Below, piece after piece: positions 500-24,109 of a stretch of DNA of 24,119 bases. This DNA is from a virus. The notes below the pieces were generated by a model, which had not been told where the DNA came from, searched no databases, and was given only the letters and a program-made list of their open reading frames with translations. The stretch is taken from positions 1 to 24,119 of IMG/VR virus record IMGVR_UViG_3300015204_000010. One strand, written 5' to 3'. Position numbers and translations under genes: made by a program. Numbering within the stretch: the stretch's first letter is position 1; the number at the start of each line of letters is the position of its first letter.

Positions 500-2239
500 T
501 TACCCCACGTACAAGCCACCCTGATGTGGTGCGGGCGATTGTGCCAGTGCTTGCGCGAACTGTTCGCTTGGAACAGCCCAGTTGTGCCCTTGATCGCGTT
601 TGTTTGCCCACCAGTCGGGATCGTTCACGTACACATTGGCCGCATCGTAGCCGGTGATAAGCACGAAGTGGCCGCCGTGATCGGCTTGATTCTCCCGGCC
701 TGTCAGCGGCGCATAACTGATCAGCGCGAACGGTGGCCGTCCGCCATCGATCTCCGACTTGATCAGGTCGATCGTCAGGCTGCCCGTCTCGGTGAGCGTT
801 AGGCCGTGCCGTCCGGCCAGCGCGATCACGGCGGCGGTGCTTAGCCCGGTATCATTCTGTGCGAGCGTCGTTTGAGCGGCCAGAGTGTCGATCGGCACGT
901 CGGGCTTACCCGTGAAGCCCAGGTACATCGCCACGACTGCCGCGCCGCAGTCGTTACGGAAACGCCGCGCGTCCGGATCTTCCTGAGAACGGTACGGGAC
1001 GGCGAGCATCTTCACCCCGGCAGGCGGCACAATTGCCACCTGCCGGGACTTAGCGAACTTTGCCAGTGCCGTCAGTGCTGTATCGATGTCGGCATCCTGC
1101 CACCCGCCGAAGCTGCCGACAGTCCAGCAGTTTACCGATACCAGCTCCTCAAAATCCTTACTGGCATCGAGGTATACACCCACGAATGAAAGTAGGGCTT
1201 CCGTACCCTGAAACGCACCGCGCGTGAAGGCGTCTGCAAACTCCATGTACACCAGCGGCGGACGAGCGTTCACAGGTACAGCGGCATACAAGCGCTGCGG
1301 ACGGAACTCGTAATACTGCCCCTGGCCGTTCGGGGATAGTTCCCCGGCGGGCGTGTTTGGCGCACAGTAGATATGCAGGCCGACGATGTGCCCGTTCGAC
1401 TTGGCATAGGTAAGCGCTTCGGCCATTGTTGCCCATTGATCCGGCTCAGGCTGTCCAATGGCATATCCGCCGATCGCCAGCTTGTAGCCGAGCGTGTCGG
1501 CTTCCTGCATACAGCCAAGCCAGAACTCGTTATGCCGATCGGCAAACGGGACTTCGTTCGCTACCTGAATATAGCCATGCGCGATACTGTGTACAGCCTT
1601 GAAGCCGTCCCACCCGGCGATCTTTTCCGAAATGAACTGTCGCCCGAAGGCGATCGCCGCTGCCGCATCGGGTGGGACGTTGATCGTTTCCGCGTCCGCG
1701 CCAAACTTACGCAGGATCACGTACTGTACACCGTCCCGGATCAGCTCGGCGGCCATATCGGGATCGTCCAGCACGGTCACGCCTGCCGGGATCGCGCCAG
1801 CGGCAATGTAGCCGCGCACGGCGTCCCGATCGTTTTCCAGAATGTGGAGGCCGATCCGGTTTTGCGGCGACGGCTTAGACTGCGAGAGGTATTCCCCTGC
1901 ACACCAGCCGAACGCGCCATCAAACGTTTTTACATACTGCCAATGATGTCCATTTGCGATATGCGCCTCGGCTGGCGTCAGCACGTCTAGCGGCGTTCCG
2001 TGCGGCATGGTACGCAGGATCGGGGCAGTCGTAGCCGGAGCGGCGCGCATGTTTACGGCGTCAGTTGTGTAAGCAATATACAAAGTCGTTTGCCCGCCGA
2101 CATTTACCGTCACGCCGAGCGCCTGATCGAGCAGGTTGGCCGACAGGGTAATCGTCTGACTATTCAGCGTGATCGTGACAAGTGCCGCAGGATCACATTT
2201 CGTCAGCGCGGCTTTGAGGGCATCGAGGGTATCAGTCAT
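500..2239 (-). CDS. Modular endolysin: SH3, TIM-barrel glycosidase-like and C39-like peptidase parts
   Basis: This 579-aa protein begins at an ATG with AAGGAG six bases upstream. Three parts are visible. Residues about 58-120 look like a bacterial SH3 (wall-binding) domain (VNMRAAP..., then GWCAGEYL). Residues about 127-395 look like a TIM-barrel glycosidase: an Asn-Glu pair at 228-229 (QVANEVPF) suits a clan-A acid/base, and Glu333 (VYMEFADA) suits a nucleophile. Residues about 410-575 look like a C39-like papain-fold peptidase, with NDCGAA around Cys431, His524 in GGHFVLITGYD and an Asp near 540. It has no signal peptide, so release would need a holin. Cutting both sugar and peptide bonds of peptidoglycan is inferred from the domains. 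The wall-hydrolase role is well supported, but the glycosidase family is less certain. Confidence 0.85.
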   Translation of the reverse strand: MTDTLDALKAALTKCDPAALVTITLNSQTITLSANLLDQALGVTVNVGGQTTLYIAYTTDAVNMRAAPATTAPILRTMPHGTPLDVLTPAEAHIANGHHWQYVKTFDGAFGWCAGEYLSQSKPSPQNRIGLHILENDRDAVRGYIAAGAIPAGVTVLDDPDMAAELIRDGVQYVILRKFGADAETINVPPDAAAAIAFGRQFISEKIAGWDGFKAVHSIAHGYIQVANEVPFADRHNEFWLGCMQEADTLGYKLAIGGYAIGQPEPDQWATMAEALTYAKSNGHIVGLHIYCAPNTPAGELSPNGQGQYYEFRPQRLYAAVPVNARPPLVYMEFADAFTRGAFQGTEALLSFVGVYLDASKDFEELVSVNCWTVGSFGGWQDADIDTALTALAKFAKSRQVAIVPPAGVKMLAVPYRSQEDPDARRFRNDCGAAVVAMYLGFTGKPDVPIDTLAAQTTLAQNDTGLSTAAVIALAGRHGLTLTETGSLTIDLIKSEIDGGRPPFALISYAPLTGRENQADHGGHFVLITGYDAANVYVNDPDWWANKRDQGHNWAVPSEQFAQALAQSPAPHQGGLYVG

Positions 2240-20785: not shown

Positions 20786-22224
20786 ATGAACCTTCTTACT
20801 TCTGGCGTTAACGGCTTGCGATCGAGCATCAAATACGCGCCCGACGTGGCGTCTACCTGATCGTCGTGTGCGCCCATCGGGAAACTGGTCAGTTCATCGA
20901 TGTACGCGGGCGTCCAGGCGCGATTGAGCACATACACCTGCCGCGATCCGGCGCGTGCCGCAAAAGGAAGCGCGCGCGTCAGCTTGTCAGCTTCGGGACG
21001 ATAGCCCTTGATGTTGTACTGGAATAAAACCGGATCGCGCGTCAGTTTGTCCACCGCTCGGCTTTGGAAGTACGCAACTTCAATGCCGAGCGAGACTTCA
21101 GTCCCGTCAAGCAGCGCAACACGTTTAATTTCGTTAGGCACTTCGTCCCATTCTTTTTGCAGGCGCACCACGTCCAGAATGATCAACAGTCCCGTCTTCG
21201 TCAGACCCATCAGCAGACCAACGGTGTAATCAGCGGTATCGCGACTGGACAGCGCCAAGTCCCAGAAACGAACGCGGCGCACAATGTCGGCGGGCGCATG
21301 ATCGATCCGCTGTAAGTTGGCCGCCTTGAATAGTCCGCCTTCTTTCGACATTGGACTTTGCTGATAAAGAGCCGAGAATGGATATTCGCCAAGATCGGCC
21401 TTGATATCCAGCAGCTTGGCGCGATCGTACCATGGCGCACACAATGGCTCGCCCGGCTTCCGGCCAAGCGGATCGTTATCTTCTGCTAACGCCGGAAGTG
21501 TCAGGCACGTCCACTTATCGCGCTGTTCGAGCAGCAGGCGGCCATGCACATCGTCTTTGTGCCAACGGGTCATCACCGACACATGCGCAGCGCCCGGCTG
21601 TTTGCGGGTGAGAAGATCGCTCAGCAGCCAGTCCCAATCGCGATCCCGCTGGCCTGCCGACTCAACTTCTTCGCGCGATTTTACAAGATCGTCGGTGATC
21701 AGACAGTCAGCGCCCTTGCCTGTTACTCCAGCCCCTTTGCCAACGGCGTCAAGTCCACCTTCATGATCAGCAATGTCCCAGTGATCTTTGGCTTGACTGT
21801 CGCTCGCCATACTGATCCCGAACACTTGCTGATAGCGCCGCAGCCGCATAATTGTTCGCACTTGTCGGCTATTTTTAGTCGCAAGTGACTGGTTATAGCT
21901 GGCAAGAATGACGCGCTTGTTCGGGTTTCGTCCTAGAAAATACGCAGGCAGCATATGCGAGATCTTCCGCGTTTTTCCATGTCGAGGCGGCAACTCGATC
22001 ATGAGATTGCCGATTCCAGACTGGCCGTTTGTCTCGATGTACTCTACTACTAGCTGTAAATACTTATCGATCATCGCCAAATGCGGATGATGTTCGTAGC
22101 GCGGCCACACAAATCGGCTGAACAGCGTGAAGTCTTCCCGTACCATCGATGCAATGGCACGATCGACTAACTGCCGGTCCGCGTGTCCGATCAATGCCTC
22201 ATTAGTCAAGGGTATGTCGATCAA
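20782..22224 (-). CDS. terL: Terminase large subunit
   Basis: This 480-aa protein is the packaging motor ATPase and nuclease. I choose the TTG at 22224, which overlaps the small-subunit stop (TTGA); the frame is open upstream but only as a shadow of that gene. Walker A is PPRHGKT (about residues 79-85), Walker B is LITDD (175-179), and VMTRWHKDDVHGRLL (about 217-231) is the coupling region typical of this terminase type. The C-terminal RNase H-like nuclease begins with RFWDLALS (Asp322) and ends with HDDQVDATSGAY (Asp454, Asp455, Asp458). All key acidic residues are present, so the enzyme looks intact. An ATG at 22146 is an alternative start that would drop 26 residues. Confidence 0.95.
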   Translation of the reverse strand: MIDIPLTNEALIGHADRQLVDRAIASMVREDFTLFSRFVWPRYEHHPHLAMIDKYLQLVVEYIETNGQSGIGNLMIELPPRHGKTRKISHMLPAYFLGRNPNKRVILASYNQSLATKNSRQVRTIMRLRRYQQVFGISMASDSQAKDHWDIADHEGGLDAVGKGAGVTGKGADCLITDDLVKSREEVESAGQRDRDWDWLLSDLLTRKQPGAAHVSVMTRWHKDDVHGRLLLEQRDKWTCLTLPALAEDNDPLGRKPGEPLCAPWYDRAKLLDIKADLGEYPFSALYQQSPMSKEGGLFKAANLQRIDHAPADIVRRVRFWDLALSSRDTADYTVGLLMGLTKTGLLIILDVVRLQKEWDEVPNEIKRVALLDGTEVSLGIEVAYFQSRAVDKLTRDPVLFQYNIKGYRPEADKLTRALPFAARAGSRQVYVLNRAWTPAYIDELTSFPMGAHDDQVDATSGAYLMLDRKPLTPEVRRFI

Positions 22225-22697
22225 GCGTTCACACTGGAAACCGTTGCTGAATAGCGCTTGTAAGCCATCGTGATGATCGACATCCGATCGGCGTCCGATA
22301 GTCCGTCTAATGTCAGCGCGCTCATTTCGTGTCCTGCACTGGTGAGATCGGTTTTGACTGGCGCATTCAGGCCAAGCAGCGCGGCGCGCCGTTCCATGAT
22401 GCGCAATACACGATCGATAACCAGCGTTTCGCCCTTTAGTGCTTTCGGCCAAAGTGCCGATAACATCATGTCGAGACGCGCCACTTCCAAATCGCGCACC
22501 GATCCGGCGGCGTCTACCGTTTCTTTCCTGACTGCGGCCATAACCGTTGTCAGATCGCGGCCTACTGTAGAATAGGGAACATCCAGCTGATCGGCGATCT
22601 GACGGATCGTCAAACCACGCAGACGATAGGCGTATACGTCGCGTTGGCGCGTTTCTCTAAGTTCGCGAGCGCCGGTCTTCTGATGCGTGAGCGGCAT
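22221..22697 (-). CDS. terS: Terminase small subunit
   Basis: This 158-aa protein is the DNA-recognition partner of the large terminase and the first gene of the late operon. Residues about 19-53 form a helix-turn-helix (YRLRGLTIRQIADQLDVPYS, then TVGRDLTTVM). A helical central part (about 68-112) with ARLDMMLSALWPKALKG and VIDRVLRIMERRAALLGL resembles the oligomerisation region of such subunits. GGAAG lies four bases before the ATG, close to the optimum. It overlaps the large subunit gene by four bases. The leftward promoter with a dyad lies about 20-50 bases upstream. Confidence 0.9.
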   Translation of the reverse strand: MPLTHQKTGARELRETRQRDVYAYRLRGLTIRQIADQLDVPYSTVGRDLTTVMAAVRKETVDAAGSVRDLEVARLDMMLSALWPKALKGETLVIDRVLRIMERRAALLGLNAPVKTDLTSAGHEMSALTLDGLSDADRMSIITMAYKRYSATVSSVNA

Positions 22698-22933: not shown

Positions 22934-22962
22934 TTGACACAATCTGCAGGCCCGTCTATAAT
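22934..22962 (+). promoter_or_regulatory. Consensus sigma70-type rightward promoter
   Basis: TTGACA (22934-22939) and TATAAT (22957-22962) are both perfect and are separated by exactly 17 bp. Transcription should begin near 22969 and run into the helix-turn-helix gene. Such a perfect promoter in a phage usually needs a tight repressor. Confidence 0.88.
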
Positions 22963-23006
22963 AGTCTTATAAATACGGACGATTTCCTGTCTGTATTTAT
23001 AAGACT
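22963..23006 (+). promoter_or_regulatory. Inverted repeat with 18-bp arms at the start of the rightward transcript
   Basis: AGTCTTATAAATAC (22963-22976) and GTATTTATAAGACT (22993-23006) are perfect 14-bp arms. After one G/T mismatch, GAC and GTC extend them to 18 bp about an 8-base loop. The left arm begins directly after TATAAT and covers the transcription start. It can act as an operator, or, from about 22969, as a 5'-terminal mRNA stem of about 12 bp. No T run follows, so a terminator is unlikely. Confidence 0.75.
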
Positions 23007-23044
23007 GACCAGTTCGCTAAGATATGATAAGGCACACAGCGACC

Positions 23045-23224
23045 ATGTTAACCGCCAAGTCCAATTCCCCACGCAATTTGATTGTGACTCTGATCGAAGA
23101 GTATCAATCGACCATTAAGGTAGCGCGCGCGCTGAACGTTGCGCCGAACACTGTCCGCTGGCACTTGAAAGCCGCGAAGTACGCGTTCAATAAAGACGCG
23201 CGCAAGTGGGAACTGCAGGCGTGA
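23045..23224 (+). CDS. Small helix-turn-helix protein, first gene of the rightward operon
   Basis: This 59-aa protein is read from the ATG at 23045, with AAGG 12 bases upstream. An in-frame ATG at 23024 would give 66 aa but has no ribosome binding site. Residues about 11-43 (NLIVTLIEEYQSTIKVARAL, then NVAPNTVRWHLKAAKY) are a clear helix-turn-helix: helix, AxxL turn with NVAPNTV, and recognition helix VRWHLKAA. The end is KWELQA. It has no other domain. It is directly downstream of the strong promoter and large inverted repeat and could be an autoregulator or a regulator of the late promoter. It is shorter than usual Cro/CI repressors and its target is unknown. Confidence 0.7.
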   Translation: MLTAKSNSPRNLIVTLIEEYQSTIKVARALNVAPNTVRWHLKAAKYAFNKDARKWELQA

Positions 23225-23370
23225 TATATCAGCCGCACCCTGAGCGCGCGCTCGCCACCTTCTACTGCGATACACCGCGCAGCCACCGACAGGCGCAAGG
23301 CGTAGCAGCGATCCGCAGCCTGCCGCCTCACCCAGTAATGCGCACGCCATACTTCGCTCGCCTCGATTAA
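23221..23370 (+). CDS. Possible 49-aa coupled ORF
   Basis: A GTG at 23221 overlaps the stop of the helix-turn-helix gene by four bases (GTGA), the coupling used by several late genes here. The frame ends in TAA at 23368-23370, 19 bases before the next gene. It begins with YQPHPERALATFYCD and contains RSHRQAQGVAAIRSLPPHP. It is basic, with several Pro and His residues and one Cys. No family is recognised. The coupling and the complete filling of the gap are the only support. Confidence 0.45.
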   Translation: MIYQPHPERALATFYCDTPRSHRQAQGVAAIRSLPPHPVMRTPYFARLD

Positions 23371-23389: not shown

Positions 23390-24109
23390 ATGACAACCAT
23401 TCCAGCGACTTCTACGATCCCGAACTTCAGCAACGCCTCGCTGCTGCGCATCCTGAATGGTCTCGAGGCGTGCCCGAACAGCATCGCGTTTGTCGATAAG
23501 CAAACAGCGCGGGAGGCGCTGGCAAACTGTGCGAGCCTCGGTTGGATCGATTGGCTGATCAAGGCCGCCGACGGCAAGTTTGGACTTCCCGCTGCCACAT
23601 GGCAGGCTGGGCGCAAGGCGGCAGAAGCAAAGTGGCAGGACTCGCTTGACGCGGCAGACGCCAAGCGGCAGGCCGCGCTCGACACAGTAGACGTCACTTG
23701 GCGGGCCGCGCTCGACGTGGTAGAGGCCAAGTGGCGTCCTTTGAGCGACGCGGTAGAGGCCAAGTGGCGACTTGAACTCGACGCGGTAGAGGCCAAGTGG
23801 CAACCTGAAATCAGCGCGATCGACGCCAAGAGGCGGGTCGAACTCAGCGCGGTAGACGCCAAGTGGCGGACTTTGAGCGAAATAGCAGAACGCGCGCGGC
23901 GGACTGAGTTTAGCTCGGTCGATGCCAAGTGGCGACCTGAACTCGACGCGGTAGAGGACACATGGCGGACTGAGTTCTGGGCGGCCGACGACAAGGGGCG
24001 GACTGAGCGAAACGCGGTAGACGCCAAGTGGCAGACTGAGCGAAACGCGGTAGACGCCAAGCGCTTAGCAGATATTAAAGCATTGTTCGTATTCGCCGAT
24101 TGCAACTAA
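23390..24109 (+). CDS. Hendecad-repeat protein with conserved N-terminal domain-like region
   Basis: This 239-aa protein starts at an ATG with AAGGA eight bases upstream. Residues 1-70 are a non-repetitive part, with SLLRILNGLEACPNSIAFVD and REALANCASLGWIDWLIKAA. Residues about 71-228 are a run of 11-residue units, consensus E-L-D-A-V-E-A-K-W-R-x. The Trp register falls at 71, 82, 104, 115, 126, 137, 159, 181, 192 and 214, replaced by Arg or Gly at 93, 148, 170, 203 and 225. Core residues are spaced 3-4-4, as in hendecad coiled coils. Pro at 117, 139 and 183 would kink a continuous helix. The first part weakly recalls phage and bacterial Imm5-like 'putative immunity' proteins (AxxxC, WxxWL, then Ala-rich repeats and an ADI end). 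That is recalled by eye, and function is unknown. Confidence 0.8.
   Translation: MTTIPATSTIPNFSNASLLRILNGLEACPNSIAFVDKQTAREALANCASLGWIDWLIKAADGKFGLPAATWQAGRKAAEAKWQDSLDAADAKRQAALDTVDVTWRAALDVVEAKWRPLSDAVEAKWRLELDAVEAKWQPEISAIDAKRRVELSAVDAKWRTLSEIAERARRTEFSSVDAKWRPELDAVEDTWRTEFWAADDKGRTERNAVDAKWQTERNAVDAKRLADIKALFVFADCN
23603..24073 (+). repeat. Tandem 33-bp degenerate coding repeats
   Basis: About fourteen units of 33 bp, each coding one 11-residue repeat, lie inside the last gene. The best conserved core is GACGCGGTAGAGGCCAAGTG (for example near 23748 and 23781), with variants in the other units. Units are in frame and diverged, so copy number can change without a frameshift. The lack of stop codons on the opposite strand is a by-product of the repeat. 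Confidence 0.85.

What the first reader, a model, noticed from the sequence alone, without database searches (positions are those of the whole stretch)
23390..24109. Trp-register hendecad-repeat protein in a phage early-type operon
Fifteen successive positions, exactly 11 residues apart, carry Trp ten times, and the hydrophobic spacing is 3-4-4, the hallmark of hendecad coiled coils. A Trp in a repeated core position is rare. Pro in three units argues against one long rod and for segmented helices. The gene follows a DNA-binding protein and a perfect promoter, so it should be strongly expressed early. The first 70 residues weakly recall Imm5-like immunity proteins. The protein could be a superinfection-exclusion, anti-host or toxin-neutralising factor, but function is open.
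Basis: partly seen in the sequence, partly recalled or inferred. Interest (0 to 1): 0.72.

Follow-up and report, generated by a model that had tools for sequence, protein, structure and literature searches.

The report
Early phage protein with Trp-hendecad rod
An early-type gene of an uncultivated phage encodes a small helical head joined to a long rod made of 15 eleven-residue repeats, and it turns out to belong to a widespread, apparently unstudied group of phage proteins that combine different heads with the same kind of variable-length rod.

Summary
P0001 (23390-24109, +, 239 aa) has 15 positions exactly 11 residues apart, ten of them Trp, and its hydrophobic period fits an 11/3 helix. Direct library and database searches found no relative.

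A profile built without P0001 from 116 IMG/VR proteins shows that residues 17-60 are a degenerate member of a common phage N-terminal 'cap' (C-x18/19-C-x4-W-x2-W; E=4.7e-8 single test). In relatives this cap is usually joined to an Ala-rich region, matched by Pfam Imm5_like in 13 of 37. In ten-odd others it is joined to Tyr hendecads ('AEYxRVTAPAx'). P0001 itself lacks the Imm5_like domain.

Its Trp repeats are closest to those of proteins with unrelated caps (DUF7666 and an 'HHE..RIxYIL' cap). The group is therefore modular: at least six cap classes share hendecad rods. Two phages 99.8% identical over 9.2 kb differ by exactly two repeats in this gene. Neighbours are mostly replication and recombination genes.

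Best reading: an early host- or defence-directed binder, in which the cap gives specificity and the rod gives length and oligomerisation. The architecture is well supported. The function is inferred.

The parts
22934..22962 (+). perfect sigma-70 type promoter TTGACA-17-TATAAT
   Evidence: 12 of 12 matches
22963..23006 (.). 18-bp inverted repeat, 8-nt loop, directly after the -10 box: operator or leader hairpin (role inferred)
23024..23224 (+). 66-aa helix-turn-helix-like protein, first gene of the operon (start could be 23045)
   Evidence: weak HTH matches only, best E=0.0012
23221..23370 (+). 49-aa ORF starting GTG, overlapping the HTH stop as GTGA
   Evidence: sequence
23390..24109 (+). P0001, 239-aa cap plus Trp-hendecad protein
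23438..23569 (+). N-terminal cap, residues 17-60: C28-x18-C47-x4-W52-x2-W55, degenerate member of the phage cap A family; modelled as four short helices
23600..24094 (+). 15 hendecad units, residues 71-235, consensus WRxELDAVDAK; the last unit is degenerate

Best explanation
P0001 is a modular early phage protein. A small four-helix cap (residues ~15-64) is followed by a continuous or once-broken amphipathic rod of hendecads whose W/L/V strip forms the core of a coiled coil, probably by self-association. It belongs to an apparently undescribed phage protein group in which several unrelated caps are attached to hendecad rods of variable repeat number. Most likely it acts early as a stoichiometric binder of a host or defence component: the cap supplies target specificity, and the rod supplies oligomerisation, avidity or spacing and is tuned by gain and loss of 33-bp units. 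Shown here: the repeat, the cap homology, the cap/rod mosaic, repeat-number change between near-identical phages, several copies per genome, and a neighbourhood of replication and recombination genes. Inferred: oligomerisation, early expression and the binding target. Confidence in the architecture is about 0.85, in the host- or defence-directed binding role about 0.3.
For: Cap: an HMM from 116 IMG/VR caps, P0001 excluded, hits residues 17-60 with E=4.7e-8 (single test) and 5e-4 among 9,669 sequences including 2,500 shuffles of P0001; the next hit is 0.16. In the reverse test the cap alone, against 22,341 ORFs, returned cap-family genes as its top-ranked hits (best 4e-5). Rod. Cap/rod mosaic: hendecad proteins carry at least six cap classes, and the closest rods to P0001 (E 1e-52 to 6e-23) have a DUF7666 cap (L293) or an HHE..RIxYIL cap (L300, L303), with L304 having a further N-terminus. 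Repeat-number change: L229 and L286 are 99.8% identical over 9,228 bp but differ by exactly two units, 170 versus 192 aa. Copy number: seven tandem cap A genes in L153/L154, and up to 15 model matches per record for hendecad types, with several matches possible per gene. Context: neighbours match DNA polymerase, DnaB helicase, primase, Erf, resolvase, recombinase and methyltransferase families. L220, whose TerL is related to the window's, has its hendecad operon diverging from the terminase genes in the same arrangement as the window. Link to inhibitory proteins: 13 of 37 cap A proteins match Imm5_like.
Against: P0001's cap lacks the R and D of the conserved C-x-R-x-D-W core and is the most divergent member seen apart from L225, so it may have lost the ancestral cap function. 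Nothing ties any member to a measured activity. Unit-to-unit pN/pS is 0.86, so selection on the repeats is not shown. Long single helices are readily predicted with high confidence, and pTM is only 0.52. No solved structure matched the whole protein or the cap. An association with Lar-like anti-restriction genes, seen in two loci, did not hold across the other loci.
Confidence: 0.45

Rival explanations
1. The rod is a lipid-surface amphipathic helix of the apolipoprotein type: 11-mer repeats lie flat on the host inner membrane, for example to exclude superinfecting phage or to organise replication at the membrane.
For: The best sequence match in the PDB is apolipoprotein A-I (E=0.0047). Related Trp-hendecad proteins match Pfam Apolipoprotein at 7e-7 and 2e-4. 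Trp is typical of membrane interfaces.
Against: All matches are far below Pfam's cut-off of 90 bits and are expected for any charged 11-mer repeat. The hydrophobic strip is narrow (three positions), acidic residues flank it directly, and the opposite face is A/T/P rather than acidic (unit table), which suits a coiled coil better than a class A lipid helix. There is no transmembrane segment or signal peptide apparent in the sequence.
Confidence: 0.15
2. It is a regulatory or scaffolding partner of phage DNA replication or recombination, acting with the neighbouring early genes rather than on the host.
For: Neighbours across loci are mainly polymerase, helicase, primase, annealing and resolvase families. 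In vir526 the cap gene lies between a DnaB-like ORF and exonuclease/Sak4 genes.
Against: Accessory and anti-host genes also sit in early regions. Almost no isolated phage record matched the cap or rod queries, and the proteins occur in many paralogues and vary in length, which is unusual for a core replication partner.
Confidence: 0.25
3. It is a toxin-neutralising immunity-type protein: the cap is a remnant or partner of the Imm5-like fold and the rod replaces the Imm5_like domain.
For: Cap A is fused to Imm5_like in 13 of 37 relatives. Tandem arrays of such genes resemble polyimmunity loci described for bacterial immunity genes (PMC3482391).
Against: P0001 has no Imm5_like match and the cap lies outside the Imm5_like match region in L101 (51-167). 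No toxin gene was recognised in the window. The immunity function of Imm5_like is itself a prediction.
Confidence: 0.1
4. It is a selfish or low-value repeat expansion within a decayed gene, with no selected function.
For: The 33-bp DNA repeat is unstable in relatives, the cap is degenerate, and unit pN/pS is 0.86. Antisense frames are open too.
Against: The frame is intact over 239 codons with promoter, ribosome site and operon. The same W/L/V register and R/Q2, D/E9 and K11 preferences recur in independent phages and in two MAG contigs with different caps.
Confidence: 0.1

Closest known systems
Phage cap A proteins (C-x18/19-C-x4-W-x2-W head), e.g. vir526_00023 of BK063670 (phrog_18326) and more than 100 IMG/VR loci; no function assigned
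   Same: Cap of about 45 residues with both Cys and both Trp at the same spacing; early region.
   Different: Most have an Ala-rich, Imm5_like-type body and the C-x-R-x-D-W core; P0001 has ASLGW and a Trp-hendecad body.
Phage Tyr-hendecad proteins 'AEYxRVTAPAx' with cap A (L229, L286, L240, L178, L057, L225)
   Same: Cap A plus 11-residue repeats with an aromatic in a fixed core position; similar total plan, and L225 shows a similar loss before W (ARLGW).
   Different: Tyr instead of Trp, A-E-Y-x-R-V unit instead of A-K-W-R-x-E-L-D-A-V.
Trp-hendecad proteins L293/L301 (DUF7666 cap), L300/L303 and L304 (other caps)
   Same: Almost the same unit (AKWKPERDAVDAKW, AKWRPELDAVDAKW); E 1e-52 to 6e-23 over the rod.
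   Different: Unrelated N-terminal domains and different C-terminal tails.
Pfam Imm5_like PF21805 and Imm5 PF14423
   Same: Found next to cap A in many relatives; helical.
   Different: Not present in P0001.
Apolipoprotein A-I 11-mer repeats
   Same: Charged amphipathic 11-residue helix repeats.
   Different: Sub-threshold match, different charge layout, no evidence of lipid binding.

Membership tests
Phage cap A family (defined here) | Profile match over the ~45-residue cap | tested here: met
   E=4.7e-8 with P0001 excluded from the profile; reverse search
Phage cap A family (defined here) | Two Cys and two Trp at conserved spacing | tested here: met
   C28, C47, W52, W55 align with the family
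Phage cap A family (defined here) | C-x-R-x-D-W core (R and D at 90% or more) | tested here: not met
   P0001 has C-A-S-L-G-W; L225 shares the loss of D. The R/D frequency is inflated because the scan pattern selected for it
Hendecad coiled coil | 11-residue period with core positions spaced 3-4-4 | tested here: met
Hendecad coiled coil | Oligomeric helical rod | not testable with these tools
   Helix predicted; oligomer state not modelled
Imm5_like PF21805 | Profile match (cut-off 25 bits) | tested here: not met
   No match at E<=10 for the whole protein or residues 1-70
Imm5_like PF21805 | Neutralises a cognate toxin | not testable with these tools
   No assay; predicted only for the family
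Apolipoprotein PF01442 | Profile match (cut-off 90 bits) | tested here: not met
   12.2 bits, E=0.14
DUF7666 PF24703 | Profile match in the N-terminal part | tested here: not met
   No match in P0001; present in L293 (E=2.5e-7)

The most novel reading that the evidence does not exclude
Phages carry a combinatorial protein system in which interchangeable small caps are swapped onto hendecad rods whose length changes by recombination of 33-bp units, giving a rapidly diversifying set of early binders, often many per genome, directed at variable host or defence targets.
Probability: 0.2. Interest if true: 0.85.

Novelty: new variant of a known kind. Interest (0 to 1): 0.5.

Why it matters
The window protein is one entry point into a large group of phage proteins that are annotated, where at all, as hypothetical, and that a limited literature search did not find described. 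The group shows head swapping, variable repeat number between near-identical phages, and many paralogues in early regions, which are patterns usually tied to host-phage conflict. It gives concrete sequence signatures (the cap motif and the A-[KE]-[YW] step of 11) with which to collect members and test a function, and it explains why an Imm5-like resemblance was felt.

Tried and rejected
Direct searches of P0001 gave no usable match: Pfam, PHROGs, NCBIfam, PADLOC, IMG/VR, isolated phages. Plasmids were searched only with a recalled consensus and gave nothing. PDB gave only weak apolipoprotein-type matches. The way in was that recalled consensus of the phage cap, which was then replaced by fetched sequences and tested with P0001 left out. 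A link to Lar-like anti-restriction genes, suggested by L286 and L101, was tested over the fetched loci with a motif and rejected (1 near versus 2.9 expected; a first, stricter motif was unsuitable). Homology of cap A and the commoner cap B (C..Q..LF...FG.SV.VTEALC...DKFDW) is only suggestive (hhalign p about 0.001-0.004, low probability), and P0001 does not match cap B (0.5 bits). Foldseek of the whole model and of the cap gave nothing significant. Paper searches for phage hendecads, DUF7666 and repeat/paralogue terms gave nothing relevant. No Rfam or tRNA match in the window.

Full report
What is there. The window is the whole of an IMG/VR virus record of 24,119 bp. Most of it is a tailed-phage structural cassette on the minus strand (portal, Mu-like major capsid, terminase large subunit). 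To the right of the terminase genes a short plus-strand operon begins at a perfect TTGACA-17-TATAAT promoter (22934-22962). An 18-bp inverted repeat lies at the expected start of transcription (22963-23006). The operon holds a 66-aa HTH-like gene, a 49-aa ORF overlapping its stop codon (GTGA at 23221-23224), and P0001 (23390-24109), which ends ten bases before the contig does. What follows P0001 is unknown.

The observation. The eleven-residue register is real and far beyond chance: 15 positions, Trp at ten, lag-11 identity 0.44 against 0.094 in shuffles, and a hydrophobic moment peak at 98.2 degrees. The unit consensus is W-[RQ]-x-E-L-D-A-V-[DE]-A-K. On an 11/3 helix W1, L5 and V8 fall within about 33 degrees of one line, flanked by acidic positions 4 and 9 and basic positions 2 and 11. 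This is arithmetic from the register and fits a hendecad coiled coil better than a class A lipid helix. AlphaFold2 with 44 family sequences gives helices 15-24, 29-35, 40-46, 50-60, 68-172 and 177-235 (mean pLDDT 87.6, pTM 0.52). The cap alone gives the same four short helices at lower confidence (76.2). The helix is not broken at Pro 117 or 139, so the idea of Pro-segmented helices is not supported, with the usual caution that such models favour long helices.

Finding the family. Direct searches failed. A recalled consensus for a phage cap found vir526_00023 (BK063670), and a degenerate DNA pattern for C-x-R-G/A/V-D-W-x-x-W then returned 120 stretches (scan stopped at its limit), nearly all encoding cap proteins. 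With P0001 excluded, the HMM of 116 caps matches residues 17-60 at E=4.7e-8 (one test) or 5e-4 among 9,669 sequences including shuffles of P0001, with the next hit at 0.16. A second profile gave 1.3e-7 (its alignment had contained P0001, so it is less independent). In reverse, the 66-residue cap searched against 22,341 ORFs returned cap-family genes as its top-ranked hits. P0001's cap is degenerate: it keeps C28, C47, W52 and W55 but reads ASLGW where the family has xRGDW. L225, a hendecad protein, shows an intermediate state (ARLGW).

The Imm5 lead. Of 37 full-length cap A proteins, 13 match Pfam Imm5_like (best 9e-10) and one matches Imm5. In L101 the match starts at residue 51, after the cap.

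The rod. Scans for A-[KE]-Y repeated three times at step 11 gave 120 stretches before the limit; the Trp version gave 13. Most of the Tyr hits are 'AEYxRVTAPAx' rods of variable length. Clustering the upstream regions gives at least six classes of cap on these rods: B (54 sequences), C (11), A (10), D (6), E (4) and smaller ones including DUF7666. P0001's rod is most similar to rods with other caps: L293 (DUF7666), L300 and the identical L303 in a Bryobacterales MAG contig, and L304 in a Zixibacteria MAG contig. Heads and rods have therefore been exchanged. Cap A is found on two body types, so the exchange works both ways.

Repeat number. L229 and L286 are 99.8% identical over 9,228 bp but their cap A hendecad genes encode 170 and 192 aa, a difference of exactly two units. 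Paralogues are common: seven tandem cap A genes in L153/L154, and many hendecad model matches in G003, G007 and G016 (several matches can fall in one gene).

Context. In L286 the gene lies upstream, on the same strand, of a run of resolvase, helicase, exonuclease, ssDNA-binding, DNA polymerase and primase genes. Among 82 same-strand neighbours of hendecad genes the families matched most often are DNA polymerase, DnaB helicase, Erf annealing proteins, resolvases and recombinases, with only two terminase families in the list (only the first 25 of 90 families are shown, and there was no control set). L220, whose terminase is related to the window's (30% over 269 aa), has its hendecad operon diverging from the terminase small and large subunit genes, as in the window. 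Early-region placement is thus supported by position; expression timing is not measured.

Mechanism. The most likely working model is a binder: a specific small head on an oligomeric rod whose length is adjusted by unit gain and loss. That the target is a host or defence component is inferred from early placement, accessory distribution, many paralogues, rapid structural change and the Imm5_like link. It is a minority-confidence statement (about 0.3), with a replication partner as the strongest rival. Selection on the units could not be shown (pN/pS 0.86).

Novelty. Each ingredient (hendecads, DUF7666, Imm5_like) is known. A limited search of an open-access library found no description of a cap-swapping hendecad group in phages. 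P0001 is a divergent Trp variant of that group, so I rate it a new variant of a known kind, with the group as a whole deserving more interest than the single gene.

Noticed in passing
window 22963-23006: 18-bp inverted repeat (94% complementary, 8-nt loop) directly after the -10 box of the perfect promoter; operator or leader hairpin.
   Followed up: partly
window 22221-22697 (-): Gene next to the terminase large subunit matches a PHROG labelled 'RNase E' (phrog_645, 3.6e-24) with an HTH region; by position it looks like a terminase small subunit, so the label may be wrong.
   Followed up: no
window 500-2239 (-): Possible lysis protein combining an SH3_3 domain with a C39-like peptidase domain.
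   Followed up: no
L153/L154 2148-5894: Seven tandem paralogous cap A proteins with near-identical heads and C-terminal tails but shuffled Ala/Trp/Tyr-rich middles.
   Followed up: partly
L229 and L286: Near-identical phage contigs differing by exactly two 33-bp units in the cap A hendecad gene.
   Followed up: yes
L173, L203, L206, L213, L220, L227 and others: A second, commoner cap (C..Q..LF...FG.SV.VTEALC..HADKFDW.WAA..LL) on hendecad rods, often several genes in a row; possibly a distant relative of cap A, unproven.
   Followed up: partly
L303 7288-7917 and L300 2993-3619: The same Trp-hendecad protein occurs in a Bryobacterales MAG contig and in an IMG/VR contig, hinting at an acidobacterial host for that phage.
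   Followed up: no
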